From Candidatus Cloacimonadota bacterium (GTDB taxonomy: Bacteria > Cloacimonadota > Cloacimonadia > Cloacimonadales > GCA-2742885), in assembly GCA_002742885.1 (NCBI GenBank), contig PDOO01000024.1:1-64000 (forward strand): a stretch of DNA of 64,000 nucleotides, in the 5' to 3' direction. Positions 3,780 through 25,750 of this stretch are shown here, piece by piece. The notes under the pieces are model-generated. The model worked only from the letters and a program-made list of their open reading frames with translations. It made no database searches and was not told the DNA's origin. Both the position numbers and the translations under genes were made by a program. Numbering within the stretch: the first letter of the stretch is position 1; each line of letters begins with the position of its first letter.

Positions 3780-5140
3780 CCGAAATTATTTTGTCATTAC
3801 TTATTTTATTCCTTATTTTGGCATGGATTGCGACAAGAAACAGTCAAAATAAAAAATTATCAGATCTGAAATATCAACTTGCCAAATCGGAAGCTCGCAA
3901 TAAGGAATTGGCGGAAGATTTCGAATATATGAAAATCGACAAAATAAAACTGGAAAAAGAATTTGATTTTCTGGTAAGCAAAAACGGAGAACTTCAAAAC
4001 ATAAGAGAAGAAAACCGAAAAATTGAAGAAAAATGCAACATTCTGAGAAACGAATTGGCAGAAACAAAAGCCGATTTGAAATCTGAACGCAAAATATTCG
4101 CCGAAAAAATCAGACTTACCGAAAAAAACAAAGAACAAATGACGGAAGAATTTGAAAATCTGGCAACCCGAATTATGGAAGCAAACGCAGAATCTTTGCG
4201 ACTCAGACAAACCGGAAGTTTGAAAGAAATAATATCTCCTTTAAAAAATCAATTGGACGGATTCAAAACCAAAATAGAAGAAATTTATTTGGATGAAGCC
4301 AAAGACAGATCATCGCTGAAAACCGAATTGAAACAATTGAAAGAAATAAATCAACAAATCAGCGAAGATGCCGTAAATTTAACCAATGCCCTCAAAGGAG
4401 ATTCCAAATTTCAGGGAAGTTGGGGAGAAATAAAATTGGAACGTATTTTGGAAGATTCCGGTTTGCAAAAAAATCTGGAATACGAAAGTCAGGTTTCGCT
4501 GACCTGTAAATCGGGAAAAATATTTCGCCCCGATGCCGTAATTCATCTTCCGGACGGAAAAGATATCGTCGTGGATGCCAAAATGTCGCTTACCGCTTTC
4601 GAAAGATATTTCAATTCCGAAGATTCAACTGCAAAAGAAACCTTTCTTAACGAACATATTAAATCCGTAACATCGCATATTAAAGAACTTACGTCTAAAA
4701 ATTATCACGAACTTAACGGCATAAATTCTTTGGATTTCGTGCTGATGTTTATTCCCGTGGAATCGGCGTTTCTTCTGGCAAACCAAAAATCGCCGGAAAT
4801 GTTCAGCAAAGCTCTCGCCAAAAATATCTTCATTGTTTCTCCTTCCACTCTGATTGTAACTTTGCGAACCATCCACAATATCTGGAGAAACGAACATCAA
4901 CACAGAAACGTAAAGAAAATAGCGGAAAGAGGAGCTTTGCTCTTCGATAAATTCTCGGATTTTGTCAAAGATATGGAACAGATAGGAATAAACTTGGAAA
5001 AAGCAAACTTTTCTTATCAAAAATCCATGAATAAACTGAGTTCCGGAAACGGAAATCTCATTAATCAGGCTCGACAACTGAAAGAACTGGGTTTACGAAC
5101 CAAGAAAGAATTGCCGGAAAAATTTCTTGCCGTAGAATAA
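3773..5140 (+). CDS. rmuC: RmuC family DNA recombination protein
   Basis: A 455-residue protein with an N-terminal membrane anchor (residues about 3-20), a long coiled coil (about 25-190) and the conserved RmuC domain with its restriction-endonuclease-like fold. Seen motifs are FQGSWGEIKLERILE, RPDAVIHLPDGKDIVVDAK, DFVLMFIPVESAF and SPSTLIVTLRTI. RmuC limits inversions between short inverted repeats; the biochemical activity is not settled. The start overlaps the selB stop, which suggests translational coupling. It ends at a bidirectional terminator shared with the convergent hydrogenase operon. Confidence 0.92.
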   Translation: MLTEIILSLLILFLILAWIATRNSQNKKLSDLKYQLAKSEARNKELAEDFEYMKIDKIKLEKEFDFLVSKNGELQNIREENRKIEEKCNILRNELAETKADLKSERKIFAEKIRLTEKNKEQMTEEFENLATRIMEANAESLRLRQTGSLKEIISPLKNQLDGFKTKIEEIYLDEAKDRSSLKTELKQLKEINQQISEDAVNLTNALKGDSKFQGSWGEIKLERILEDSGLQKNLEYESQVSLTCKSGKIFRPDAVIHLPDGKDIVVDAKMSLTAFERYFNSEDSTAKETFLNEHIKSVTSHIKELTSKNYHELNGINSLDFVLMFIPVESAFLLANQKSPEMFSKALAKNIFIVSPSTLIVTLRTIHNIWRNEHQHRNVKKIAERGALLFDKFSDFVKDMEQIGINLEKANFSYQKSMNKLSSGNGNLINQARQLKELGLRTKKELPEKFLAVE

Positions 5141-5212
5141 AAACGGAAAAAATCAAAAGAAATTATGCTGTATAAAAGGAACCGAAAGTTCTGAACCTGT
5201 ATTTGAAGATAA

Positions 5213-5243
5213 AAAAAACCCGAACTTAAAGCTCGGGTTTTTT
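5213..5243. terminator. Bidirectional terminator between rmuC and hydA
   Basis: An 11-bp stem, AAAAAACCCGA (5213-5223) with TCGGGTTTTTT (5233-5243), around a 9-nt loop. It has A and T tracts on either side, so it can stop transcription from both convergent genes. Confidence 0.85.
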
Positions 5244-5259
5244 AATTTAATTTTATGTC

Positions 5260-7035
5260 TTAGTGTTTATGAGTAATTTCTTTTTCAACGGTTCCGCTGA
5301 TTTGAGATCTTTGGAAGTAATGGGTGTGCAGAAGATTATGAGCTTTAGGTCCTCCGATTTCCCCCAGCCATTCATCATACATTTTATGTATTTCTCCGTT
5401 GTGATGAGAACAACGTTTAGGCAAATCATGATCTTCTTTATAAAGACTTTGCCCTCTGCGCGCTCTGTCGGCAAGGGAAGAGCCGAAAGGTTGACCTCCG
5501 CCGCCCACGCAACCGCCGGGACAAGCCATAACTTCTATAAAGTGTAAATTTTCTTCTCCCGCCTGAACTTTTTCCATTAATTTTCTGGCATTTCCCAGTC
5601 CGTGAGCAACAGCCACGTTTACGGTTAATTCGCCGAAATCTTTGGTCGGAACGGTAACGCTGGTTTTCTTAACGCCTTTCAATCCGCGAACAGCTTTGAT
5701 TTCTACATTGCCCAAATCTTTGCCTGAAAGAATATTGTAGGCAGTTCTGGTAGCAGCTTCCATTACGCCCCCGGTAGCTCCGAAAATTGTTCCTGCTCCG
5801 GTATATTCTCCCATAAGGAGATCGGATTTTTCTTCAGGAAGATTTTTGAAATCCAGTCCGGCTTCTTTTATCATGCGAATAAATTCTCTGGTTGTAAGCA
5901 CATAGTCCACATCTTGGAATCCAGAATCGCTCATTTCCGGTCTTCTTGCCTCAAATTTTTTGGCGGTGCAAGGCATTACGGCAACGGAAACAATTTTTGC
6001 CGGGTCAATATTTTCTTTTTCTGCAAAGTAAGTTTTTACCAAAGCTCCGAACATTTGTTGAGGAGATTTACAGGTGGACACATGATCCGCAATATTCGGG
6101 AAAAATGTTTCCATAAATTTTACCCAGCCCGGCGAGCATGAGGTAATCATGGGCAAAGTTCCGCCGGTTGCCACTCTTTTCACCAATTCGTTTGCTTCTT
6201 CCATAATGGTGAGGTCAGCAGAGAAATTGGTATCCAAAACATGATCAAATCCCAGTCTTCTTAAAGCTGCATACATTTTTCCGACTGTTACCTGTTGGGG
6301 ATCAAGTCCGAATTCTTCGCCTAAGGTTGCTCTTATCGAGGGAGCTTCCTGAACAATTACAACTTTTTCGGGATCAAGCAAAGCATCCCAAACTTTTTCG
6401 TTTTCGGTTTTTTCCCGAAGAGCTCCAACCGGACAATATACCGTACACTGACCGCAATTCACGCAGGCGCTTTGTCCCATTCCGGAATTAAAAGCAGTTG
6501 AAATAGTGCCGTCGAATCCCCTTCCGTCCACTACCAAAGCGTTTACCGTTTGTATTTCGGAACAAACCGTAATGCAACGTCCGCAGGAGATGCATTTTGA
6601 AGGATCTCTCACAATGGAAAGACTTGTATCATCAACCGGTTTCTGTTTAACTATTGTGGGAACGGAAAGTTCCTGAATACCCATTTGATAAGATATATCC
6701 TGCAATTCGCATTTTCCGTTTTGAAGGCAAGTCGGGCATTTTACATCATGGTCGGAAAGAATTATTTCTACCAAAGTTTTTCTCATTTTACGCAGTTTCC
6801 TGCTGTTGGTGGTAATTTTCATTCCGTCCCAACAAGGCGTTACGCATGCTCTTTTGGGAACGTTAACTCCTTCTATTTCCACAACACATACGCCGCAATT
6901 GGCAGTTGGTTTTAAATCCTGATGATAGCAAAGCGTCGGTATATGTCTTCCCGCTCTTTTTGCAGCAGAAATTATGGTTGTTCCCTGCGGAACAACGAGT
7001 TCTTTATTATCTATCTGTATTTTTATGTCAGCCAT
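5260..7035 (-). CDS. hydA: [FeFe] hydrogenase subunit HydA (NADH-linked, bifurcating type)
   Basis: The catalytic subunit, which makes or oxidises H2 at an H-cluster. In order: an N-terminal plant-type [2Fe-2S] domain (CYHQ..NCGVC..RACVTPC), a His-Cys3 cluster site (HDVKCPTCLQNGKCEL), two [4Fe-4S] motifs (CISCGRCITVC and CVNCGQCTVYCP), then the H-cluster signatures TSCSPGWVKF (about residue 300), MPCTAKKFE and EVMACPGGCVGGGGQ. The third ATG-frame codon, at 7035, is the better start: GGAGG lies 7 nt before it but only 1 nt before the ATG at 7041. It is the last gene of the hydC-ATPase-hydD-hydB-hydA operon. That setting indicates the multimeric enzyme that couples NADH and reduced ferredoxin oxidation to H2 formation. 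The bifurcating mode is inferred from context. Confidence 0.95.
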   Translation of the reverse strand: MADIKIQIDNKELVVPQGTTIISAAKRAGRHIPTLCYHQDLKPTANCGVCVVEIEGVNVPKRACVTPCWDGMKITTNSRKLRKMRKTLVEIILSDHDVKCPTCLQNGKCELQDISYQMGIQELSVPTIVKQKPVDDTSLSIVRDPSKCISCGRCITVCSEIQTVNALVVDGRGFDGTISTAFNSGMGQSACVNCGQCTVYCPVGALREKTENEKVWDALLDPEKVVIVQEAPSIRATLGEEFGLDPQQVTVGKMYAALRRLGFDHVLDTNFSADLTIMEEANELVKRVATGGTLPMITSCSPGWVKFMETFFPNIADHVSTCKSPQQMFGALVKTYFAEKENIDPAKIVSVAVMPCTAKKFEARRPEMSDSGFQDVDYVLTTREFIRMIKEAGLDFKNLPEEKSDLLMGEYTGAGTIFGATGGVMEAATRTAYNILSGKDLGNVEIKAVRGLKGVKKTSVTVPTKDFGELTVNVAVAHGLGNARKLMEKVQAGEENLHFIEVMACPGGCVGGGGQPFGSSLADRARRGQSLYKEDHDLPKRCSHHNGEIHKMYDEWLGEIGGPKAHNLLHTHYFQRSQISGTVEKEITHKH

Positions 7036-14080: not shown

Positions 14081-17000
14081 TCATTTAAGCATTAAACATT
14101 TCTTTACGGCTTCTGTTTTTCCGTTTACTTTTAATCTGTATAAATAAACACCTGAGCCGACAAAATTTCCGGCTTCATTCTTACCGTTCCAAAGAACTTT
14201 GTGATACCCTTTTTCCAATTTTTTATTAATCGAAGTTCTGACTTTCTGACCTTTTACATTATAAATAGAAAGATTTACTTCAGAATTTTCAGGTATAGAA
14301 AAATTTATAGTTGTCGAAGGATTAAAAGGATTCGGATAATTTCCTTTAAGAACAACTTTATCAGGAATATTATCGTTTAACTCTCCGTTTTTATCAAAAG
14401 CAACAATATGATAATCATTCCGGTTAGAAATAATTTTACCTTTTTCAAAGTTATTTTTCTCTTGATTGAAAATAAAATATCCTTCCGGAGATCTACTGCC
14501 TCTTTCAGACAAAATCTTAAAATAAATTTCTTGTTCTTCTCGCCCGGAATTTTGGGTATAAGCAAGAATTTGAGCTTGATTATTTTCTGCAACCGCTGCT
14601 CCTATACAAACAGAATCGACAAAAGCTCCTATTTCAATATCACCGTCGCTTAGTCCGATAATATCAATTGCTTCATAATCAGATTTTTGTTCAAAAGTAA
14701 AAACTGTCGGCTTTTTTAAAGCATCTTTTTGTAAGGGGTTCCCCGAATATCCCCATTTAAAATCTTCGATAATTTCACTTACTTTAACCATGTAACCTCT
14801 TCCGTAATGAAGAGCTCGTATTCTATTGCTCGGCACCGGCACCGGAATTAATCCTCGCGAGATATTTTGTTTATCGTAAAACCATGTTTCAGCTTTAATA
14901 CTTATAACTTTATCAAAATCATCTCCGAAAGCATCATCAATATTCTTACTTTCAAGGAGCCAATAACCTATCCAATTATACACACCGGGATATAAAGTTT
15001 TAGACGTATAAGGATGCCCTCCGGTAAGATCAATATCGTAAGATTTTGATGACGAACTCATTTTTACTTTATAGCAATTATTATTTTCAAAATTTGTTAA
15101 CCCGTGCGAACTCCATGAATTGTCGGAAACATTGTATTCCGTATAACCGTTTTTTGTTTTAACAAATAACCCGAAAGGATTAAAAGAATCCAAAATATCT
15201 TCCTCGTTTAAATCTGCAAACGGGAATGAACACCAATTCCACCCCCCGTGAAAACCTGTATAAGCGGAAAAAGGTATAATAAATTCAGGAAAATAAGGAT
15301 CATCGGAATTAATTACAATTTTTCCGGAATAGTTTTTATACATTATTTCCGGTGCAAACTTCAACTTAATAATCTCCGTTCCGCCGGGACTGACGGAAGA
15401 CGGACAATTAATGATCTCTAACCCGGCATCAGTCTCATCACTTAGGGTGCAATTTATATTATTTACGGAATACTCGTCATTTTCATTATGCAAAACAAGA
15501 GATACCGTTACAGGGCTGTCAGGATTAACATTTCCTAAGTTAATTTCCTGTTTTTCAATATAAATACCTTCTTCATAAGCTTCACAAGCTCCTATATCGA
15601 CAGCTGACGATGAGATACGAGGATTACCGTATAAATCCATACTTTGAAAGTATAGATAAGAAGATACCGAATCGTCAATATTTACAGCCGAAATTCCGCT
15701 ATTAAAACATGGAGAATTTGCAGTTATGGAATAATCTTCCGAATTAAGCAAAGGATCAGAATTAATGTTACCGGATGCGGAATAAGTTAAAGCAACCGGC
15801 TCTTCATTAGCATCAAGATTATAAACAACTATACAATCAATATCAGAATTATTTATATTTTCAAGACCGCTCTGTATATTATTATTTTTAAAAATAAATT
15901 TATGACAGGACATAGTTTCATCGTCAAGTTCAACATTAATTTGATTACCTCCTCCATGAGGGACGTAATTATATTGAGAATAATCATAATTAGCTGTATT
16001 ACCCCAGAATACATTGTTAATCAAAATGACATCATCATCAGGTTTGGTGAAAGATAAAGCCCCTCCTAAATTCTCGGCATTATTATTAAAAAAGGTGTTA
16101 TTAATTATTACCGGAGAACAACTGTAATCGTTATTATTTTTAAACCAGACTGCACCGGCGGAACCGGCTGAATTATTTACAAATAAATTACCTAATAAAA
16201 GAGGATATCCAAACAACCCTTCCCCATTATAGTCTATAGCGCCTCCGCAACCGCTATATTCGGGAAGTACTCCGATTGTGGTATTGTTCTTAAAAACACA
16301 ATTAATAAAATGAGCATAATTTTGCAATGCGCTTACTGCCCCTCCCCTATTCGCAATATTATTTTCAAAAATGCATTCCTTGAATTTCACAAAAAGCTCG
16401 GTATTATCAGGATGAGAGTAAGCGTCATAAATATAAACAGCTCCTCCTTCCAAAGCTTTACAATTTCTAAATTGGCAATTATTAAAAATAATTTGAGCAT
16501 AATTATCAATATATAAATCACTGTTATTTATACGGATACCGCCTCCGCCGGTATTATTTAATTTACATGCATCTTTTATAATAGTATAATTTAATTCCGA
16601 ATCTCCGAAGTTTACGTTTGAAGCAAAGTCTCCAAAAAACATACCTGCCCATTTATCACCGTCATCATCAGGATTATCAGATAACCCTTTCAATATAATC
16701 GGTTTTTCCAGAGTTCCTTTTGTAATTAAACTTCCCCTTACTTTGAAATATTTACCGGGTTTAAATTTAAGTTCTATGCCTGATGCAGTATAAGAAGGAT
16801 CTATTACAAGAGTTACTCCTTCAGGAACAATAAGATGATCATTTTGAATCAATCCGGAATCAATTCCTTCGGGGACAACCGTACTTTCGGTTATATAAAG
16901 AGTAACTAAATTATTACCGTCATATCTTGACACCGTTTTTTTATCAAACAGAGAGTATCTGAGTTTTGCCGGAATTTCACTTGAATCTTTAGGGTGAAAC

Positions 17001-18547
17001 GACCAGTTTAAGCCGGTTACTGCCGGCCAAAAATCAGGATGAGAGGACAAATAATAAGAATTATCATTCCAAGCAACAGAACTCTTTTTTTTGTATTTAT
17101 TATCAGTCCACGTTCCGGTATAATATTGTCCCCAGAAATTTTTACGTTTATGAATTGAATTTTTTTCAAAAGTTTTTTTATCAACCCATCTGCCGCGAGT
17201 AAAATCAGCATACTCTTCCAAAAAAGCAATTGTCAGATAAAATCCTGTAATAGAAAGATTATGATTAATTATAACTGACGCTATACTTGATGCGGTAATT
17301 CCAAAAGAAGTTATTGCCCACGTATCTGTCCAGTGATAAGTACTTTTCATATAGTTGTTAACGGCAATCTGTTTTGTCTGCCTTTTAGTATAATATTTAC
17401 CTGATAACACATCATGAAGCTTATCGAAAATTGAAAGTCCGTACTTCTTAGCTCTGTTTCTAAAGAAAGTATTGAATTTTTTGTTTTTACCGTGAAATGA
17501 ATCTACCCACATAGAATTACAAATGTTGCCTTCAAAAAGATTACTGTAAGGTCCTCGATAACCTGTACCGGAAGGTAAGTTATTTTCATAGCTCGGCTCT
17601 CCATGACAACAGATGTCACCGATAAAATCATCAGATATGCATGTACCCAATAACCATTCCAAAAAATTTTCACACCAAGGAGGACAATTATTTAATTCCA
17701 GATTATCAAGAGTTGAGTGTTTACCTTTTGCAACATAATTATAACCGAAGACATTATAATGAGCTCCATTTTGTACAAGCATTGAATGCCGGCATTTATT
17801 GAAGATATTGTTTTCAACAAGACAATGACTGCTTCCGTATTCAATTATAACTCCATATCCGTAACCGCCCTCACCGTGAAATTGAGCATCACAAAAATAG
17901 CACCCGGCTATCTCAATATGCTTTGAGTTTGCAATACGGATATGATGTCCGACAGGATCTCTGCTCTCGACTCCATATACCCAGCAATTCTCAGCATTTA
18001 TGAAACTGATATTATTTCCTTGCTTATTTTCCTCATTATTCTTTAATGAACCTGTATCTATACGATTAATAAGAATATCTTCTATACCTGCACAGGTAAT
18101 CGACTCCTGCTCACTTCCCAAAATAATACAACTTTTCTTGTCATGTCCCGTTCCCTTAATATTGAAATTAAAAATGGTTCGCTTACTCCGATCTTCATCT
18201 CGTCTAAACATGTGGTTACCGCTGAGAATTATATAGGACTTAAGTTTAATGGGAGCATTAAAATTATATTCTCCGGGGGCGAAATCCAATACACCAATAT
18301 TGTTAGAATCAACCCCTTCATTAACCAGAGCTTCTATATTATCATTTATTGTACTCCAATCCATACCCGGAGTGATATATCTTATATAATTTTCATTAGT
18401 GCTTGGGACAGGTAACTCTCCACCCATTATCCCGGCTTGTTGCCATTCTTCGCTTAATGAATCAACAATTGCATACTCTGTTTGGAAATATGCAGATAAT
18501 GATAAATTAATCAATACAAAAATAATTATTATAAAGTATTTTTTCAT
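14081..18547 (-). CDS. Large secreted right-handed beta-helix protein with T9SS sorting domain
   Basis: A 1488-residue exported protein with a signal peptide (MKK + hydrophobic run, cut near LSLSA). A first parallel beta-helix (about 100-300; short N-rich turns such as VENNIFNKCRHS) is followed by a linker. A second beta-helix (about 600-900; NNTFFNNNAENLGGAL) ends with the choice-of-anchor Q signature VDIGACE. Next come an ASH/HYDIN-like domain (NLGNVNPDSPVTVSLVL) and a beta-rich region. A type A sorting domain closes it: NYPNPFNPSTTINFS, IYNVKGQKV, SGVYLYRL. It is probably a surface adhesin or polysaccharide-active protein; I see no assignable catalytic site. Its N-terminus is copied as a fossil at 19752-19859. 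Confidence 0.85.
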   Translation of the reverse strand: MKKYFIIIIFVLINLSLSAYFQTEYAIVDSLSEEWQQAGIMGGELPVPSTNENYIRYITPGMDWSTINDNIEALVNEGVDSNNIGVLDFAPGEYNFNAPIKLKSYIILSGNHMFRRDEDRSKRTIFNFNIKGTGHDKKSCIILGSEQESITCAGIEDILINRIDTGSLKNNEENKQGNNISFINAENCWVYGVESRDPVGHHIRIANSKHIEIAGCYFCDAQFHGEGGYGYGVIIEYGSSHCLVENNIFNKCRHSMLVQNGAHYNVFGYNYVAKGKHSTLDNLELNNCPPWCENFLEWLLGTCISDDFIGDICCHGEPSYENNLPSGTGYRGPYSNLFEGNICNSMWVDSFHGKNKKFNTFFRNRAKKYGLSIFDKLHDVLSGKYYTKRQTKQIAVNNYMKSTYHWTDTWAITSFGITASSIASVIINHNLSITGFYLTIAFLEEYADFTRGRWVDKKTFEKNSIHKRKNFWGQYYTGTWTDNKYKKKSSVAWNDNSYYLSSHPDFWPAVTGLNWSFHPKDSSEIPAKLRYSLFDKKTVSRYDGNNLVTLYITESTVVPEGIDSGLIQNDHLIVPEGVTLVIDPSYTASGIELKFKPGKYFKVRGSLITKGTLEKPIILKGLSDNPDDDGDKWAGMFFGDFASNVNFGDSELNYTIIKDACKLNNTGGGGIRINNSDLYIDNYAQIIFNNCQFRNCKALEGGAVYIYDAYSHPDNTELFVKFKECIFENNIANRGGAVSALQNYAHFINCVFKNNTTIGVLPEYSGCGGAIDYNGEGLFGYPLLLGNLFVNNSAGSAGAVWFKNNNDYSCSPVIINNTFFNNNAENLGGALSFTKPDDDVILINNVFWGNTANYDYSQYNYVPHGGGNQINVELDDETMSCHKFIFKNNNIQSGLENINNSDIDCIVVYNLDANEEPVALTYSASGNINSDPLLNSEDYSITANSPCFNSGISAVNIDDSVSSYLYFQSMDLYGNPRISSSAVDIGACEAYEEGIYIEKQEINLGNVNPDSPVTVSLVLHNENDEYSVNNINCTLSDETDAGLEIINCPSSVSPGGTEIIKLKFAPEIMYKNYSGKIVINSDDPYFPEFIIPFSAYTGFHGGWNWCSFPFADLNEEDILDSFNPFGLFVKTKNGYTEYNVSDNSWSSHGLTNFENNNCYKVKMSSSSKSYDIDLTGGHPYTSKTLYPGVYNWIGYWLLESKNIDDAFGDDFDKVISIKAETWFYDKQNISRGLIPVPVPSNRIRALHYGRGYMVKVSEIIEDFKWGYSGNPLQKDALKKPTVFTFEQKSDYEAIDIIGLSDGDIEIGAFVDSVCIGAAVAENNQAQILAYTQNSGREEQEIYFKILSERGSRSPEGYFIFNQEKNNFEKGKIISNRNDYHIVAFDKNGELNDNIPDKVVLKGNYPNPFNPSTTINFSIPENSEVNLSIYNVKGQKVRTSINKKLEKGYHKVLWNGKNEAGNFVGSGVYLYRLKVNGKTEAVKKCLMLK

Positions 18548-18666
18548 GTTTTCTCCTTATTTTTCAATTAACCCTACGGGATTGTTATTGTAATAAGATA
18601 GAGGAATAACACATAATGTAACCCCAAAGGCAAACAAAATTAAAATATTAATATGCATAAAAAGTT

Positions 18667-19689
18667 TTAATAATATCTGGAAGCAATACCTACAATTCGG
18701 GTTTCATTGCGATTAAAGTCATTTATTTTTGTATCAATATAATATCCGGTACCGTCACTTATACGATAGATAAATTTATTAATTGTTAAATAACCGCCAT
18801 TAGGACTGAAACAATATTCGTCGTAATAGTATAAATCGATAAGTTCATCTTCAATTTCCATACTGTTAACATCAAATAAAACAGAAGTGCCTGCAGTATA
18901 AATAATAGCTAACCCTGTTTCAAAATGATATGTGAAATGTGATGCGTTTGACGAACTGTATATTATTTCATCGTCACCATTCTTTAATGGTACTTTATGT
19001 ATCTCGTATTTAGCGATATACCGTTCTTTATCGTATTCTTTATAACGGAAGGAATATAAAATTTCATCATTATTTTTAAAAAATGGATAACGGAAATTTA
19101 TACTCTGATTCGAGTTCTCTATCTTATAATCACAAATTATCTCATTTTTATTTATTTCGATATCTTTTATAGCCAAAAATGCATGCTTATCGGATATGCC
19201 GTAAACATAAACAATCATCCGGTTATCAGGAGAAAAAGAAGGATATATTTCCCGAATATCAGGAGTACCGGTTAAATTTTTAAACTCTGTTCCATCAGTG
19301 TTTGCCATGTAAATTTCACCGTCCATGTTAAGAAGCATTTTGGTCCTGTCGGAAGAGAAACTGTAAATTGAGCCGACTGAATCAATAATTGTTCTGCGGT
19401 TTGATCCGTCCAAGTTCATTAAATCAATATGCGTACAACAATCCAACATCAGAAGTTCCTGTTCGGTATTTTCCAAATCCGGTACAAAGTATGGCGTCCC
19501 ATTCCCTCTGCAAAGATATTGTAAATCCGTACCGTCAATATTTGAAACAGCAATCCAGTCTTCAGAATAACCCTGTCCCGTATAAAATAATTTTGAATAA
19601 AGAAACGGTGTTAACAAGTTCAAATCACAGGATGTTATAAATAATACAATTGCCGATAACGAAAGGAAGATAAAAATCTTTTTGTTCAT
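18667..19689 (-). CDS. TolB-like beta-propeller lipoprotein, tandem paralogue A
   Basis: A 340-residue predicted lipoprotein with signal MNKKIFIFLSLSAIVLF and lipobox ITSC. The body has WD40/PD40-type strands such as IDLMNLDGSNRRTII and IYMANTDGTEFKNLTGTP. Up to NLTGTPD (about residue 140) it is close to paralogue C at both protein and DNA level. From there it diverges completely: its second half (IREIYPSFSPDNRM to SRYY) has no counterpart in B or C. It lies directly upstream of the beta-helix gene, which I take to be the ancestral order. The ribosome-binding site is within the copied tail of the 244-residue gene. Its ligand is unknown. Confidence 0.75.
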   Translation of the reverse strand: MNKKIFIFLSLSAIVLFITSCDLNLLTPFLYSKLFYTGQGYSEDWIAVSNIDGTDLQYLCRGNGTPYFVPDLENTEQELLMLDCCTHIDLMNLDGSNRRTIIDSVGSIYSFSSDRTKMLLNMDGEIYMANTDGTEFKNLTGTPDIREIYPSFSPDNRMIVYVYGISDKHAFLAIKDIEINKNEIICDYKIENSNQSINFRYPFFKNNDEILYSFRYKEYDKERYIAKYEIHKVPLKNGDDEIIYSSSNASHFTYHFETGLAIIYTAGTSVLFDVNSMEIEDELIDLYYYDEYCFSPNGGYLTINKFIYRISDGTGYYIDTKINDFNRNETRIVGIASRYY

Positions 19690-19691
19690 AT

Positions 19692-19750
19692 CTATTTACC
19701 TCTTTTAAAACTTTTCAATCTTAAATTATTATTTTTTACAAAACCGGCAT
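19692..19750 (-). pseudogene. Fossil 3' end of the 244-residue protein gene (in front of copy A)
   Basis: The last 18 sense codons and TAG of the gene at 22003-22737 (ending AGFVKNNNLRLKSFKRGK) are repeated here, in front of lipoprotein A, with no gene body before them. This stretch also supplies the AAGAGG ribosome-binding site of copy A, which may be why it has been kept. Confidence 0.85.
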
Positions 19751-19751
19751 T

Positions 19752-19859
19752 TTACCGCTCATAACTAATTGAATCAATCAATGAATATTCGGTATCAAAA
19801 TATCCCAATAATAAAGTAAAATAAATCAGAAAAATTATAAAAAGAATCATTTTTTTCAT
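19752..19859 (-). pseudogene. Fossil 5' end of a beta-helix secreted protein gene
   Basis: A 35-codon frame starts on an ATG that overlaps the stop of lipoprotein B (ATGA) and ends in TAA. It encodes a signal-peptide-like start (MKKMILFIIFLIYF) and then YFDTEYSLIDSISYE. That matches the start of the 1488-residue protein (YFQTEYAIVDSLSEE): by eye 16 of 35 residues are identical. The gene is cut off at the junction with the copied tail of the 244-residue gene. It marks the downstream edge of a duplicated unit. Confidence 0.8.
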
Positions 19860-20878
19860 AATTTATAATCCTTGACACTGATTGGAAAAATTCTTGAAAG
19901 TTGCATAACAGCTTTTTCGGAAGAAATGTTAAAATCAATTGTTCTGCCTGTTGAATTTGCTTCATCACAGTAATTTTTTAAAAGATTATACATTTCAATT
20001 GTTTCTGTGTCATAGACGTTTAAATTCACTGCCAGCAATGTTCCGTTTCTATTAAAGTTTGGAATAAAACGTCTGTAGCAAAGACCGTATTCAACCTCTT
20101 CATAAGTTATGGGATTATAGTGTTTCAGGACATTGGTCATAACATAAGCAAGCAAATTTTTATTTCTATTGTAACTGATGCGAGAAAAAATACCTCCTGA
20201 ATCAAGTATTTTTTTCTCTCCTGTATTAATATTAAAGGAATATAAACCGCACATGTTAAACGTATCATTACAGTTTTGTCCAAATATAACAGTTGATTCA
20301 TCTATAAATATTGGTGAAACATAATACTCCCAACCGGAGTAAGGCACCGAAAAGAGAACTTTTCTTTGAAGCGAAATTAAATCAATCACAGCTATACATG
20401 CAGTTGTATCGGCAATATCTATTGATTTAAAAATAACCGCATCCTCAAAAATTGAGAATGCAGGGTCTCCCTCATATTGATCCGGAGTACCGGTTAAATT
20501 TTGCAAGCCTCCTCCATCAGTGTCGGCAATATAAATATCACCGTTATTTGCAAGCAACATTTTGGTCCTGTCATCAGAAAAACGGTAAATTGAGCCGACT
20601 GAATCAATAATTGTTCTGCGGTCTGATCCGTCCAAGTTCATCAAGTCAATTCGATTACCGGAGTCTAACATCAAAAGTTCCTGTTCGGAATTTTTTAAAT
20701 CGGGGACAAAGTACGGTCTGTAATCACCTTTGCACAGATATTTTAATTTAGATCCGTCAATATTGGCCACAGCAATCCAATCTTCCGAAAAAGTCTCCTC
20801 CGGTTTTGTTAATTCACAAGATGTTATAAATAATACAATTGCAGATAACGAAAGGAAGATAAAAATCTTTTTGTTCAT
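19856..20878 (-). CDS. TolB-like beta-propeller lipoprotein, tandem paralogue B
   Basis: 340 residues, with the same signal peptide and ITSC lipobox as copies A and C. The propeller-like first half is similar to A and C, with local changes. The second half (QYEGDPAFSIFEDAVIF through NFNRNGTLLAVNLNVYDT to SRIFPISVKDYKL) is shared with C only. The stop overlaps the ATG of the fossil beta-helix start, as would be expected if a full beta-helix gene once followed it. It is probably anchored in the outer membrane or periplasm; its function is unknown. Confidence 0.75.
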   Translation of the reverse strand: MNKKIFIFLSLSAIVLFITSCELTKPEETFSEDWIAVANIDGSKLKYLCKGDYRPYFVPDLKNSEQELLMLDSGNRIDLMNLDGSDRRTIIDSVGSIYRFSDDRTKMLLANNGDIYIADTDGGGLQNLTGTPDQYEGDPAFSIFEDAVIFKSIDIADTTACIAVIDLISLQRKVLFSVPYSGWEYYVSPIFIDESTVIFGQNCNDTFNMCGLYSFNINTGEKKILDSGGIFSRISYNRNKNLLAYVMTNVLKHYNPITYEEVEYGLCYRRFIPNFNRNGTLLAVNLNVYDTETIEMYNLLKNYCDEANSTGRTIDFNISSEKAVMQLSRIFPISVKDYKL

Positions 20879-20880
20879 AT

Positions 20881-20937
20881 CTATTTACCTCTTTTAAAAC
20901 TTTTCAATCTTAAATTATTATTTTCTACAAAACCGGC
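20881..20937 (-). pseudogene. Fossil 3' end of the 244-residue protein gene (in front of copy B)
   Basis: The same 18 codons plus TAG as at 19692, with one substitution (AGFVE instead of AGFVK). It lies 2 bp before the start of lipoprotein B, just as the intact gene end lies 2 bp before lipoprotein C. Confidence 0.85.
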
Positions 20938-20940
20938 ATT

Positions 20941-20988
20941 TTATCGCTCATAACTAATTGAATCAATTAATGAATATTCCGTATCAAA
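20941..20988 (-). pseudogene. Trimmed fossil of the beta-helix gene start (after copy C)
   Basis: The 15 codons FDTEYSLIDSISYER plus TAA are identical at protein level to the end of the fossil at 19752. Here the ATG and signal peptide are deleted, and the deletion runs into the end of lipoprotein C, whose TGA stop lies inside the fossil in another frame. Confidence 0.8.
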
Positions 20989-22000
20989 TGCTGTTTGGAA
21001 AAATTCTTGAAAGTCGCATAACAGCTTTTTCGGAAGAAACGTTAAAATCAATTGTCCTGTCCGTTGAATTTGCCTCATCAAAGTAATTTTTTAAAATATT
21101 ATACATTTCAATTGTTTCTGTGTCATAGACGTTTAAATTAACTGCCAGCAATGTTCCGTCTCTATTGAAGTTTGGAATTAAACGGTTGTCACAACGAGCG
21201 TATTCAAACACTTTATCAGTCATGGGATTATAGTGTTTCAAAACAGTAAATTCATCAGAAATAATATAAGCAAACAAGTTTTCATTTCTATTATAAATCA
21301 TTTTTGAAAAAGTATAGCCCACATCAATCAATTTTTTATACCCGGTATTAATATTAACGGAATATAAACCGTTCGTATTAAGTATATCACTATAATATTG
21401 TCCAAATATAACAGTTGATTCATTTATGAAAACCGGTGATACATAATACATATAACCATCATAATGCTCAAAAAATATAACTTTTCTTTGAAGCGAGACT
21501 AAATCAATTGAAGCTATGTATGAAATTGAATCGGCAATATCGCTTGATTTGAAAATAACCGCATCTTCAAAAATTGAGAATGCAGGGTCTCCCTCATATT
21601 GATCCGGAGTACCGGTTAAATTCTTAAACTCTGTTCCATCGGTATTTGCAATGTAAATTTCACCGTCCCTGTTAAGAAGCATTTTGGTCCTGTCGGCAGA
21701 AAAACGGTAAATTGAGCCGACTGAATCAATAATTGTTCTGCGGTCTGATCCGTCCAAGTTCATCAAATCAACATGAGTATAACAATCCAACATCAGAAGT
21801 TCCTGTTCGGGATTTTCCAAATCCGGCACAAAGTATGTCGTCTCATTCCCTCTGCAAAGATATTGTAAATCCGTACCGTCAATATTTGCAACAGCAATCC
21901 AATTTTCTGAAAAAGTATTCTGAGGTTTTGTTGAGTCACAGGATGTTATAAATAATACAATTGCCGATAACAAAAGTAATATAAAAATCTTTTTGTTCAT
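20984..22000 (-). CDS. TolB-like beta-propeller lipoprotein, tandem paralogue C
   Basis: 338 residues; signal peptide and ITSC lipobox as in A and B. The first 140 residues are nearly those of A, while the rest follows B. The C-terminus ends SRIFPNSI where B has SRIFPISVKDYKL, because a deletion has fused its end to the fossil beta-helix start. It starts 2 bp after the stop of the 244-residue gene, with AAGAGG before the ATG, so those two genes are one transcript. This is the promoter-proximal and perhaps oldest position in the array. Confidence 0.75.
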   Translation of the reverse strand: MNKKIFILLLLSAIVLFITSCDSTKPQNTFSENWIAVANIDGTDLQYLCRGNETTYFVPDLENPEQELLMLDCYTHVDLMNLDGSDRRTIIDSVGSIYRFSADRTKMLLNRDGEIYIANTDGTEFKNLTGTPDQYEGDPAFSIFEDAVIFKSSDIADSISYIASIDLVSLQRKVIFFEHYDGYMYYVSPVFINESTVIFGQYYSDILNTNGLYSVNINTGYKKLIDVGYTFSKMIYNRNENLFAYIISDEFTVLKHYNPMTDKVFEYARCDNRLIPNFNRDGTLLAVNLNVYDTETIEMYNILKNYFDEANSTDRTIDFNVSSEKAVMRLSRIFPNSI

Positions 22001-22002
22001 AT

Positions 22003-22737
22003 CTATTTACCTCTTTTAAAACTTTTCAATCTTAAATTATTATTTTTTACAAAACCGGCATCATTTTTCGTTAAGATGTCTTTTTTACTCATGTTTGTAA
22101 AGGCAACAGGTACTAAAGGAAACATTTTGGGAATATCATTGGACAGCAATAAAGTATTTTCAGCTTTATTTGCTCTCAGTATTTCTTTTGTTTTTTTAGA
22201 AATATCCATATTATCCAAGTCCAATTCAATTTTTATGTATGATATACTGCTGCCATTTAATTCATATTTATCTCTTGAATTTATTATTTGCCATTTATTA
22301 ATTTTACTAAAGATTCCAGGTAAGTTATTTTTTGACTTGATAATTTCTCTTAATTCATTATCAGACAATAAAGTAAGGTTATGATCACCGCCTGCAATGT
22401 CTTTACCCCATATCCGAACAACCCTTTTGTTTGAATTAGTAAATTCTGTAAACAGCTTATTCCCTTCAAATAATTCAAGTACAGTTGTTGTTGAATCGTT
22501 TTTATCAATTACTTTAAGAATATGTTCAGAATATTCTTCTGTTGGGTTATCTTCATTAATTTCATAAATAACTTCATCGCCTTCATTCAAATTACTGCTA
22601 AATCTGAATTCTGAAGTCAACTGAATAACAGCTGTAATTCGTTTAGTATCATCAGGATCAGGTTCTGATAATTCAATACCTGAAATCTGAGATGTAATAA
22701 TAATCATCAAAAAGACTAATAATAATTTTCTCATCAA
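22003..22737 (-). CDS. Secreted protein of unknown function, head of the lipoprotein array
   Basis: 244 residues with a clear signal peptide (MMRKLLLVFLMIIITSQISG) and no lipobox. The mature part is mixed alpha/beta, with strands such as EGDEVIYEI and STTTVLELFEGNKLF and many Lys/Asn. I recognise no family. GGAGG lies 6 nt before the first ATG. Its 3' end is copied in front of lipoproteins A and B, so it formed the upstream border of the duplicated unit. Residues 218-226 (FTNMSKKDI) precede the copied tail. Confidence 0.6.
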   Translation of the reverse strand: MMRKLLLVFLMIIITSQISGIELSEPDPDDTKRITAVIQLTSEFRFSSNLNEGDEVIYEINEDNPTEEYSEHILKVIDKNDSTTTVLELFEGNKLFTEFTNSNKRVVRIWGKDIAGGDHNLTLLSDNELREIIKSKNNLPGIFSKINKWQIINSRDKYELNGSSISYIKIELDLDNMDISKKTKEILRANKAENTLLLSNDIPKMFPLVPVAFTNMSKKDILTKNDAGFVKNNNLRLKSFKRGK

Positions 22738-22821
22738 ATTCCTCCGTATTATGTTTTTTATAAATATTCATAACATGTTAAAAACATCTGAAAAAATCAA
22801 TTTTGTTTTTCTGTCAATTAA

Positions 22822-24013: not shown

Positions 24014-25032
24014 ATGACTGAAAAAATAAAATTCAATCTGCGGAATTTGGCAATTAATATCGCAATCAACACAATTATTGCCGTATCTTTTGTCATAATC
24101 AGGGAAAAATCCGTATTTTTCTCGCAAAACGGCTTTTTAAGATCTCTTATTTTTTCGCAGTCAATAGGTTTGACCTGTTATTTGCTTGCTAAAACGTTGA
24201 TTACGGGAAAAGATTCGCGCAAGCGAAAAATCATAACGGCAACGGCTCTGATACCCGGCGGAACGATTATCGGCTCTCTCATCGCTTTTACGGTAAACGG
24301 CTTTATCTTCGGCGACGTTTACGGATACAGCCTTGTAAATTCAATCCTTCCCGTAAATATATTTTTCGGATTTATCTTCGGTTTCGTAATTATTTTCATT
24401 TATATTCTTCTTTACAGAATCGAATCGGAAAAGCGGAAAAACTGACTCGTCTGAAAGCGGAAGCCGAACTTGCAGAACTTCGCTCCCGAATAAATCCCCA
24501 CTTTCTGTTTAATACCCTTAATTCCATCGCCGGAACGGTTTATGACGCTCCCGATAAAGCCGAAGAAATGATTAATAAATTGGCTGAACTTTTTCGCTAT
24601 TCTCTCAATACAAAAGAAGAAAATTTCGTAAATCTCGAAGAAGAAATAAGAATACTTACTTATTATTTGGAAATAGAAAAAATACGTTTCGGGAAAAGGC
24701 TTTCCGTAAAAATAAATACGGCAGATAATTGTCGGAAAATGAAAATTCCGCCCCTGCTTCTGCAACCTCTGATCGAAAATGCCGTTAAACACGGAATATC
24801 GCCTAAAACAGACGGCGGAAAAATTGAAATAAACATAAAGAAAACAGAGAATGAATATATGATTACGGTTGAAAACGACGGCATTCCGATTACCGGCAAA
24901 AATATTCAAAATAACGGTTTCGGACTTGCCTCAATCATCAAAAGACTGAAATTGCATTACGGAGAAAAAGCAAGCTTGACTTGGAAAACCGAACCGCAAA
25001 CCGAATTTAAAATTAAAATCCCGGCGGAATAA
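24014..25032 (+). CDS. LytS/YehU-type sensor histidine kinase, reading frame broken at an A5C tract
   Basis: The first frame (24014-24445) gives four probable membrane helices and ends RIESEKRKN-stop. The -1 frame continues without a gap as LTRLKAEAELAELRSRINPHFLFNTLNSI, the His_kinase domain with its phosphoacceptor His. HATPase motifs follow (PPLLLQPLIENAVKHG, NDGIPI, GFGLASIIKRL). Read through, it is one normal 339-residue kinase. The junction is CGG-AAA-AAC-TGA at 24434-24445. It could be a mutation, a sequencing error in the A5 run, or programmed -1 frameshifting; a 7-bp bulged stem starts about 12 nt further on. It would phosphorylate the regulator encoded 1 bp downstream. Confidence 0.8.
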
Positions 25033-25033
25033 T

Positions 25034-25750
25034 ATGTTGAGAACGATTATCATAGACGATGAAAAAATAGCTCGCAATCGAATGAAACGTTTACTGACGG
25101 GTTTTGGAGATAAAATTAAAATTATCGACGAAGCGGAAAACGGAAAAGAGGCCGTTTCCAAAATAAACGAATTAAAACCCGACCTCATTTTTCTGGATAT
25201 TCAAATGCCCGGCTTAAACGGATTTGAAGTATTGGAAAATCTTGTTTTCCGCCCGCAAATTATTTTTGTGACGGCATACGACAATTACGCCATTCGGGCT
25301 TTTGAAGAAAATTCGGCAGATTACCTGCTGAAACCCGTTACCCCGGAAAGACTGGAAAAAGCAATTTTGAAAGCGGAAAAAACACAAAATCCGGAAATCA
25401 AAAACAAAATAGATCAAATTTTGACGGCAATTACCAATAAACGCCGTAAACTCGCCGTTAAAACACAGGATAAAATTATATTTGTCGAATACGAAAAAAT
25501 CACTTGTATTCGAGCGGAAGAAAAATATGCCAGAGTTTATTCGCCCCCGAAATCCCGGCTTATTTCCAAAACTTTAAACGAATTGGAAAGAGAACTGCCC
25601 GAAAATTTTATCCGAATTCACCGTTCCTCCATCATAAACACGGATTTTTTAAAAGAAATAAAAATCGCTTTTACCGATTATTACGCCGTTTTGCAGGACG
25701 GAACGAAATTGAAAATAAGCAGAAGAGCAAAAGATAAATTGCTGAGATAA
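25034..25750 (+). CDS. LytTR-family response regulator
   Basis: 238 residues. The receiver domain has the acidic pair DDE near residue 8, phospho-acceptor Asp in LIFLDIQMPG, the conserved Thr in FVTAYD and Lys in LLKPV. From about residue 135 it is a LytTR DNA-binding domain (IIFVEYEKITCIRAEEKYARVY, FIRIHRSSIINTDFL, LKISRRAKDKL). It starts 1 bp after the kinase stop, so the pair is translationally coupled. Regulators of this type bind direct repeats and control surface or cell-wall functions; the target genes here cannot be deduced. Confidence 0.9.
   Translation: MLRTIIIDDEKIARNRMKRLLTGFGDKIKIIDEAENGKEAVSKINELKPDLIFLDIQMPGLNGFEVLENLVFRPQIIFVTAYDNYAIRAFEENSADYLLKPVTPERLEKAILKAEKTQNPEIKNKIDQILTAITNKRRKLAVKTQDKIIFVEYEKITCIRAEEKYARVYSPPKSRLISKTLNELERELPENFIRIHRSSIINTDFLKEIKIAFTDYYAVLQDGTKLKISRRAKDKLLR

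What the first reader, a model, noticed from the sequence alone, without database searches (positions are those of the whole stretch)
18548..22740. Tandem lipoprotein array that carries gene fossils marking each duplication junction
Between lipoproteins A/B and B/C lie the 5' end of a beta-helix T9SS gene followed directly by the 3' end of the 244-residue gene. The array order is 244-gene, C, head fossil, tail fossil, B, head fossil, tail fossil, A, beta-helix gene. The simplest reading is an ancestral trio (244-gene, lipoprotein, beta-helix gene) whose middle was amplified by illegitimate joining of the beta-helix gene head to the 244-gene tail at ATGCCGGT. Units are about 1.12 and 1.19 kb. 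The tail fossil was probably kept because it supplies the ribosome-binding site.
Basis: partly seen in the sequence, partly recalled or inferred. Interest (0 to 1): 0.8.

Follow-up and report, generated by a model that had tools for sequence, protein, structure and literature searches.

The report
Lipoprotein array with gene-fragment scars
A lipoprotein gene has been copied in tandem between two neighbouring genes, and each copy still carries the broken start of one neighbour and the broken end of the other; similar scars occur in relatives of the same little-known bacterial phylum, so the locus looks like one that repeatedly duplicates and reshuffles.

Summary
In a Candidatus Cloacimonadota genome, lipoprotein genes C, B and A lie between an intact 244-residue gene and an intact T9SS "bh" gene. 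Both lipoprotein spacers hold the bh start joined at GCCGG to the last 57 nt of the 244 gene (0 and 1 differences). The B/A head is complete to the junction and in frame with the tail except for one TAA. The C/B head has lost its first 60 nt, and C's stop codon lies inside it.

Relatives confirm the ancestral order 244 - lipoprotein - bh, one in another order. Of 11 lipoprotein-lipoprotein junctions examined in 9 arrays, 7 hold a bh head or bh start, one an unassigned head plus 244 tail, 3 neither.

Correction: this is not plain duplication. The head differs from the resident bh head at 43 of 116 nt (dS about 1). Gene A is mosaic: N-half like C, C-half of a type shared with another genome (AU tests p 4e-4 and 1e-33). 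Best reading: recurrent tandem amplification leaving scars, followed by exchange of lipoprotein C-halves, much like staphylococcal lpl/esaG arrays. Function is inferred.

The parts
22003..22737 (-). intact 244-residue exported protein gene (TTG start as listed), donor of the tail
   Evidence: relatives in 20 of 124 genomes of the phylum
22003..22059 (-). 3' end of the 244 gene from GCCGG, the part copied into both scars
20984..22000 (-). lipoprotein C, 338 aa; its TGA stop (20986-20984) lies inside the C/B head fossil
   Evidence: lipobox ITSC
20933..20988 (-). C/B head fossil, first 60 nt missing, carries the TAA
   Evidence: (E 3e-4)
20881..20937 (-). C/B tail fossil, 1 difference in 57 from the 244 gene
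19856..20878 (-). lipoprotein B, 340 aa; its TGA overlaps the ATG of the next head fossil (ATGA)
19744..19859 (-). B/A head fossil, 35 codons then TAA (19754-19752), to GCCGG
   Evidence: (E 4e-8)
19692..19748 (-). B/A tail fossil, identical to the 244 gene over 57 nt
18667..19689 (-). lipoprotein A, 340 aa, mosaic: N-half like C, C-half like G039
14081..18547 (-). bh gene, 1488 aa, T9SS-type C-terminal domain; its first 116 nt (18547-18432) correspond to the head fossil

Best explanation
This is a recombining tandem array of the middle gene of an old three-gene neighbourhood (244 gene, probable beta-propeller lipoprotein, T9SS bh gene). A bh head was joined to the end of a 244 gene at a 5-nt match, GCCGG, in frame. 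A later homologous duplication copied the lipoprotein with its scar, giving two scars with one junction. The scar gives each extra copy the 244 gene's ribosome-binding end, and probably began as a short translatable ORF bridging one lipoprotein's stop to the next one's start; in the window it has since decayed (TAA, 5' deletion). The lipoproteins also changed by recombination: A has an N-half like C but a C-half of another type. Shown: scar anatomy, conserved gene order, similar scars in relatives, mosaicism of A. Inferred: the order of events, the bridging role, and the benefit (most likely a varied lipoprotein repertoire).
For: Scar letters and in-frame reading; heads and tails recovered by whole-genome searches and by a six-frame profile scan with stops read through. 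Trio order in relatives. bh heads or starts at 7 of 11 junctions examined, with different breakpoints. Recognised head + 244-tail joins are in frame in 3 of 3 cases (window, G021, G093), though the G093 head is unassigned and 3 of 3 has chance 1/27. Tail-keeping trimmed 244 genes directly before a lipoprotein in five more loci. N-half/C-half conflict and a step in synonymous difference at codon 133.
Against: Head and tail of the scar do not look equally old (43 of 116 against 0-1 of 57 differences), so a plain duplication of the resident genes is not enough; a later replacement of A's 3' half and bh, or conversion of the tail, must be added. Three of 11 junctions show no fragment (G018, G039:C204, G049:C124). 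In the window neither scar is now an open bridge. In G041 the head stops 464 nt before the next gene. Array and scar could also come from fused trios (rival 1).
Confidence: 0.68

Rival explanations
1. Whole trios of different alleles once stood in tandem, and deletions from a bh head to the next 244 tail fused them. The scars are what is left of complete genes, and the heads differ from the resident bh because they come from another allele.
For: Explains the divergent head directly (43 of 116 nt; dS about 1) and A's foreign C-half.
Against: No tandem whole trios were seen in the loci examined; the tails would then also be expected to differ from the resident 244 gene unless converted (0-1 of 57).
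Confidence: 0.3
2. The chimeric mini-ORFs are kept by selection as translational relays (or short exported peptides) and are not mere fossils.
For: Open head ORFs of 145, 135, 80 and 116 codons in G035 (two), G048 and G041, and 30 codons in G093; stops of the two G035 heads and of the G093 ORF overlap the next ATG; fossil-to-bh dN/dS 0.24-0.46.
Against: The same dN/dS is expected if heads were cut from living bh genes recently, since intact bh pairs give 0.29-0.39. In the window both frames carry TAA and one start is deleted. G041's head ends 464 nt early.
Confidence: 0.3
3. The lipoproteins are an immunity or inhibitor repertoire against T9SS-exported bh proteins, and the arrays grow like CDI/Rhs orphan modules or staphylococcal lpl/tilA clusters.
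For: Tandem variable lipoproteins directly before a large exported protein, constant N-part and exchangeable C-part, fragments of the exported protein's gene between copies; published analogues.
Against: No toxin domain in bh. bh shows no abrupt switch in the window-G001 pair, although G056 against G048 or G041 has a poorly conserved middle between conserved ends. C-half type and the head that follows it do not travel together in the two pairs compared.
Confidence: 0.18
4. Chance similarity or assembly artefact.
For: The genome is a 53-contig assembly and reads were not available.
Against: 0 of 1000 shuffles reach the head score; the three lipoproteins differ from each other along much of their length; similar structures occur in separate assemblies.
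Confidence: 0.02

Closest known systems
Staphylococcus aureus lpl/csa1 (DUF576) tandem lipoproteins, with TilA beside the TslA lipase (PMC10730906 and PMC7360770, passages seen; PMC9484751, section 19 read)
   Same: Tandem variable lipoprotein genes, copy-number change, shuffling through a conserved internal stretch, an exported protein encoded at the 3' end of the cluster
   Different: Other protein family (probable propeller), T9SS cargo instead of a T7SS toxin, no immunity function shown, scars made of pieces of both neighbouring genes
esaG and tsaI immunity arrays; tspA fragment between tsaI10 and tsaI11 (PMC9484751, abstract, passages, section 19)
   Same: Non-identical tandem paralogues recombining through shared blocks; a piece of a neighbouring gene filling an intergenic region
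   Different: That fragment matches the 3' part of the toxin gene; here it is the 5' head, joined to the tail of the upstream gene
CDI/Rhs orphan toxin-immunity modules (PMC4927057, passages)
   Same: Displaced pieces of a large exported-protein gene repeated with a small partner gene, described there as a possible fossil record
   Different: Mirror image: heads upstream of the intact gene, not C-terminal tips downstream; lipoprotein type and head are not linked here
Bacterial tandem duplication with short-homology join point (PMC11111574 and PMC7360770, passages)
   Same: Short shared sequence at the join, then homologous expansion
   Different: An old, diverged natural case whose join-point scars persist and recur at homologous loci

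Membership tests
Tandem duplication with short-homology join | New joint made of two sequences normally apart, with a short shared stretch at the join | tested here: met
   GCCGG in bh, 244 and both scars; that 5 nt caused the join is inferred
Tandem duplication with short-homology join | Copies at the joint match their resident donors | tested here: inconclusive
   Tail matches (0-1 of 57); head does not (43 of 116)
Recombining tandem paralogue array (lpl/esaG type) | Tandem non-identical paralogues with constant and variable blocks and conflicting histories | tested here: met
Recombining tandem paralogue array (lpl/esaG type) | Copy number changes within a population | not testable with these tools
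   no reads or strain series
Recombining tandem paralogue array (lpl/esaG type) | Protein neutralises a secreted toxin | not testable with these tools
   needs experiment; no toxin domain found in bh
CDI/Rhs orphan modules | C-terminal toxin tip with its own immunity gene, displaced downstream of the intact gene | tested here: not met
   fragments are 5' heads upstream of intact bh
CDI/Rhs orphan modules | Displaced fragment and small partner gene are a linked pair | tested here: not met
   G035_1 and G041_1 share 91% of the C-half but their heads have dS 0.78; G048_1 and G056 share 81%, heads dS 1.18; only these two pairs
T9SS cargo (bh) | C-terminal sorting domain | tested here: met
   window bh: FlgD_ig above its cut-off, Por_Secre_tail and CHU_C below; G001, G048 and G041 bh pass Por_Secre_tail, G056 does not
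Right-handed beta-helix (bh) | Pfam beta-helix match | tested here: inconclusive
   none listed for the window protein; PF13229 in the G001 homologue (39% identical) and in G056
Beta-propeller (lipoproteins) | Sequence match to solved propellers | tested here: met
   profile hits to Scone-E (E 3e-9), Cake designs, TolB (2.8e-5); PD40 below cut-off in A, just above in G048 lipoprotein 1; fold not predicted

The most novel reading that the evidence does not exclude
Cloacimonadota carry a recurrent class of lipoprotein arrays in which each amplification makes a short chimeric ORF (bh start fused to the end of the upstream gene or to the lipoprotein leader) that works as a translational relay, while exchangeable lipoprotein C-halves give a repertoire directed at, or protecting from, T9SS-exported proteins.
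Probability: 0.15. Interest if true: 0.85.

Novelty: new variant of a known kind. Interest (0 to 1): 0.58.

Why it matters
Old join points of bacterial tandem duplications are rarely seen preserved (my general knowledge). Here they persist, similar ones occur at homologous loci in several families with different breakpoints, and they go with a sharp constant/variable division of the amplified protein. That makes it testable what decides which amplifications survive (frame, ribosome site, polarity). It also points to a lipoprotein repertoire next to T9SS cargo in a phylum where my searches of the held library found 2 papers with Cloacimonadota and type IX secretion and none with Cloacimonadota, lipoprotein and gene duplication.

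Tried and rejected
Head fossil as a recent copy of the resident bh: rejected (43 of 116 nt; dS about 1).

Co-inherited lipoprotein + head modules: not supported in the two cross-genome pairs that could be compared.

Promoter or terminator in the spacer as the reason for keeping it: consensus scan only. 42 promoter-like sites against 28.2 (sd 5.1) in shuffles; those in the scars are 9-of-12 matches (20966-20938, 19777-19749). The two 11-of-12 sites lie inside the 3' ends of C (21126-21098) and B (20013-19985), upstream of B and A; a lead I did not follow. One 5-pair terminator-like stem at 19757-19745 (3 such sites found, 1.8 expected). Not taken as evidence.

Pfam for the 244 protein: nothing above cut-off for the window protein, nothing listed for G001 and G093.

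Fold prediction: not available; the propeller assignment rests on sequence.

244 tail donor for the G035 and G048 scars: none recognised by the six-frame scan. The end of the G048 scar matches the leader of its first lipoprotein; the G035 tail does not match the 500 nt before lipoprotein 1 and its donor is unknown.

ORF-limited scans can hide out-of-frame joins, so the scan was repeated with stops read through. The profile hd11 used there contains the G093 and G026 heads, so their hits are by construction. No profile recognised the head in the G093 spacer. The dN/dS comparison includes a few tail codons of the G035 and G048 scars.

First genome-contig scan, with lipoprotein C: no relative found.

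Changed on checking: wording of the dS comparison, the size of the head deletion, the G041 gap, the Pfam status of bh and PD40, the promoter-like sites, and two confidences (best explanation set to 0.68, relay rival 0.3).
Full report
What was checked. The minus-strand order is 244 gene, lipoproteins C, B, A, then bh, at the coordinates in the parts list. The repeat family covering the spacer has copies 1189 and 1122 nt apart. A search of the whole genome with the 244 protein returned, besides the gene, its last 21-22 residues at 19695-19757 and 20884-20949. A search with the first 449 residues of bh returned the head at 19737-19859. Both used the intact proteins as queries.

Anatomy of the scar. 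From ATG to GCCGG the B/A scar and bh are both 116 nt long and differ at 43 positions. From GCCGG to the TAG stop the B/A and C/B scars match the 244 gene with 0 and 1 differences in 57. GCCGG is shared by both donors at the join in the same codon phase (bh QQ-AG, 244 ND-AG). Read from its ATG the B/A scar is one frame: 35 codons of head, TAA, then NAGFVKNNNLRLKSFKRGK of the 244 tail. Its ATG overlaps the stop of B (ATGA), as the bh start overlaps the lipoprotein stop in relative G043 (coordinates). The C/B scar shares the junction and the TAA (3 of 56 nt differ between the scars) but lacks the first 60 nt of the head, and C ends at a TGA inside it. The simplest reading is one illegitimate join and one later homologous duplication.

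Ancestral order. In G043, G052, G095, G030:C11, G069 and G121 the three genes stand adjacent in this order with one lipoprotein. The bh frame is short or split in several of them, and the 244 gene of G069 is cut by the contig end. G121 belongs to another order of the class. G001 and G093 have two lipoproteins, the window three; G003 has an extra gene before a weakly matching lipoprotein. The 244 family was found in 20 of 124 genomes of the phylum searched, so the trio is patchy. The relatives are Candidatus Cloacimonadota: L171, which matches G043, is JAIPGP010000004.1, and L172, which matches G001, is JAEKNW010000146.1.

Recurrence of scars. I recognised and examined 11 lipoprotein-lipoprotein junctions in 9 arrays among the loci fetched; other arrays may exist in the phylum. 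Seven hold a bh head or bh start: window 2, G035 2, G048 1, G041:C122 1, G001 1. In G035 and G048 the heads are open ORFs of 145, 135 and 80 codons; the two in G035 overlap the next ATG and the G048 one ends 15 nt before it. In G041 the head is open for 116 codons and stops 464 nt before the next gene. In G001 the second lipoprotein begins with a ribosome-site and start region matching that of bh. One junction, G093, has an open 30-codon ORF with an unassigned head and the 244 end (48 of 49 nt). Three have no recognised fragment: G018, G039:C204 and G049:C124, where the genes overlap. Outside these, G021 has a bh head in one frame with a 244 tail at a contig end. Trimmed 244 genes that keep the tail stand directly before a lipoprotein in G030:C6, G044, G091:C124, G107:C43 and G049:C128. 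Breakpoints differ between genomes, so I infer several independent events.

What the fossils are not. If the scar were a plain copy of the resident genes, head and tail should look equally old. The tail is unchanged, while the head has pS 0.55, dS about 1.0 and dN 0.50 against the resident bh (35 codons). In the other arrays fossil-to-own-bh dS is 0.73-1.26, comparable to 0.86-0.98 between intact bh genes of different genera. Either A's 3' half and the resident bh came later from a divergent allele, or unlike trios were fused. The unchanged tail (57 nt, more than a ribosome site needs), beside coding sequence in which B and C differ by 12-24% (columns 200-500), calls for selection on the leader or local gene conversion.

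Mosaic lipoproteins. Against C, A is 92-94% identical in DNA over columns 200-500 and 37-50% after them. pS rises from 0.12-0.27 before codon 133 to 0.64-0.78 after it, so this is a change of origin and not only of constraint. In protein, A and C share 82% of the mature N-half and 20% of the C-half; A and G039 share 55% and 50%. With 10 of the 20 sequences, the AU test rejects A+G039 in the N-half (p 4e-4) and A+B+C in the C-half (p 1e-33). The groups were chosen after seeing the identities, and the N-half A+B+C branch itself has only 85/91 support. The two G001 copies part at the homologous NLTxTP (93% and 31%). C-types are shared between genera: G035_1 with G041_1 91%, G048_1 with G056 81%. 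B and C are patchy: the longest identical run is 70 nt, reached in 1 of 2000 shuffles, though functional conservation could also do this.

Function. The lipoproteins have a lipobox (ITSC; the motif is from general knowledge) and profile hits to designed propellers, TolB and oligogalacturonate lyase, so a beta-propeller is likely. bh carries a T9SS-type C-terminal domain; the window protein itself had no Pfam beta-helix match, its G001 homologue does. Nothing shows what these proteins bind. The closest working analogue I found is the staphylococcal lpl/csa1 cluster, where one lipoprotein neutralises the secreted lipase encoded at its end and copies shuffle through a conserved internal stretch (PMC10730906 and PMC7360770, passages; PMC9484751, abstract, passages and section 19). 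PMC9484751 also describes toxin-gene fragments within a tandem immunity cluster. CDI orphan modules are a mirror image (PMC4927057, passages). I rate an immunity role at 0.18: bh shows no toxin domain and no abrupt switch against G001, though G056 against G048 and G041 has a poorly conserved middle.

Verdict. The simple amplification history is incomplete, and the scar is one case of a class seen again in relatives. It is a new variant of known recombining tandem arrays, not a new kind of system.

Noticed in passing
window 24014-25032 (+): A sensor kinase beside a LytTR-like response regulator (25034-25750) is split: the 24014-24445 ORF ends while another frame continues with LKAEAELAELRSRINPHFLFNTLNSI, which looks like a frameshift. 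Family names are from recall, not from a search.
   Followed up: partly
L074 (G000:C41:1-3608): A second bh-type gene of the same genome, directly preceded by the end of another ORF that could be a lipoprotein of this kind; the contig starts inside it.
   Followed up: no
L130 (G021:C41), 4908-5138: A short ORF reads as a bh-like head fused in frame to a T9SS-type tail, as if the middle of the gene had been deleted.
   Followed up: no
L124 (G026:C1), 4285-5284: A bh head of about 150 codons after a lipoprotein is followed by what looks like a transposase ORF (transposase named by eye).
   Followed up: no
L118 (G039:C204) 4724-4885 and before 3756; L069 (G007:C18) about 1114-1254: Similar intergenic sequence recurs before lipoproteins in G039 and seems to be read as an ORF in another genus, possibly an interspersed repeat of the phylum.
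   Followed up: no
window 21126-21098 and 20013-19985 (-): Matching 11-of-12 sigma-70-like sites inside the 3' ends of C and B could give each downstream copy its own promoter; consensus match only.
   Followed up: no
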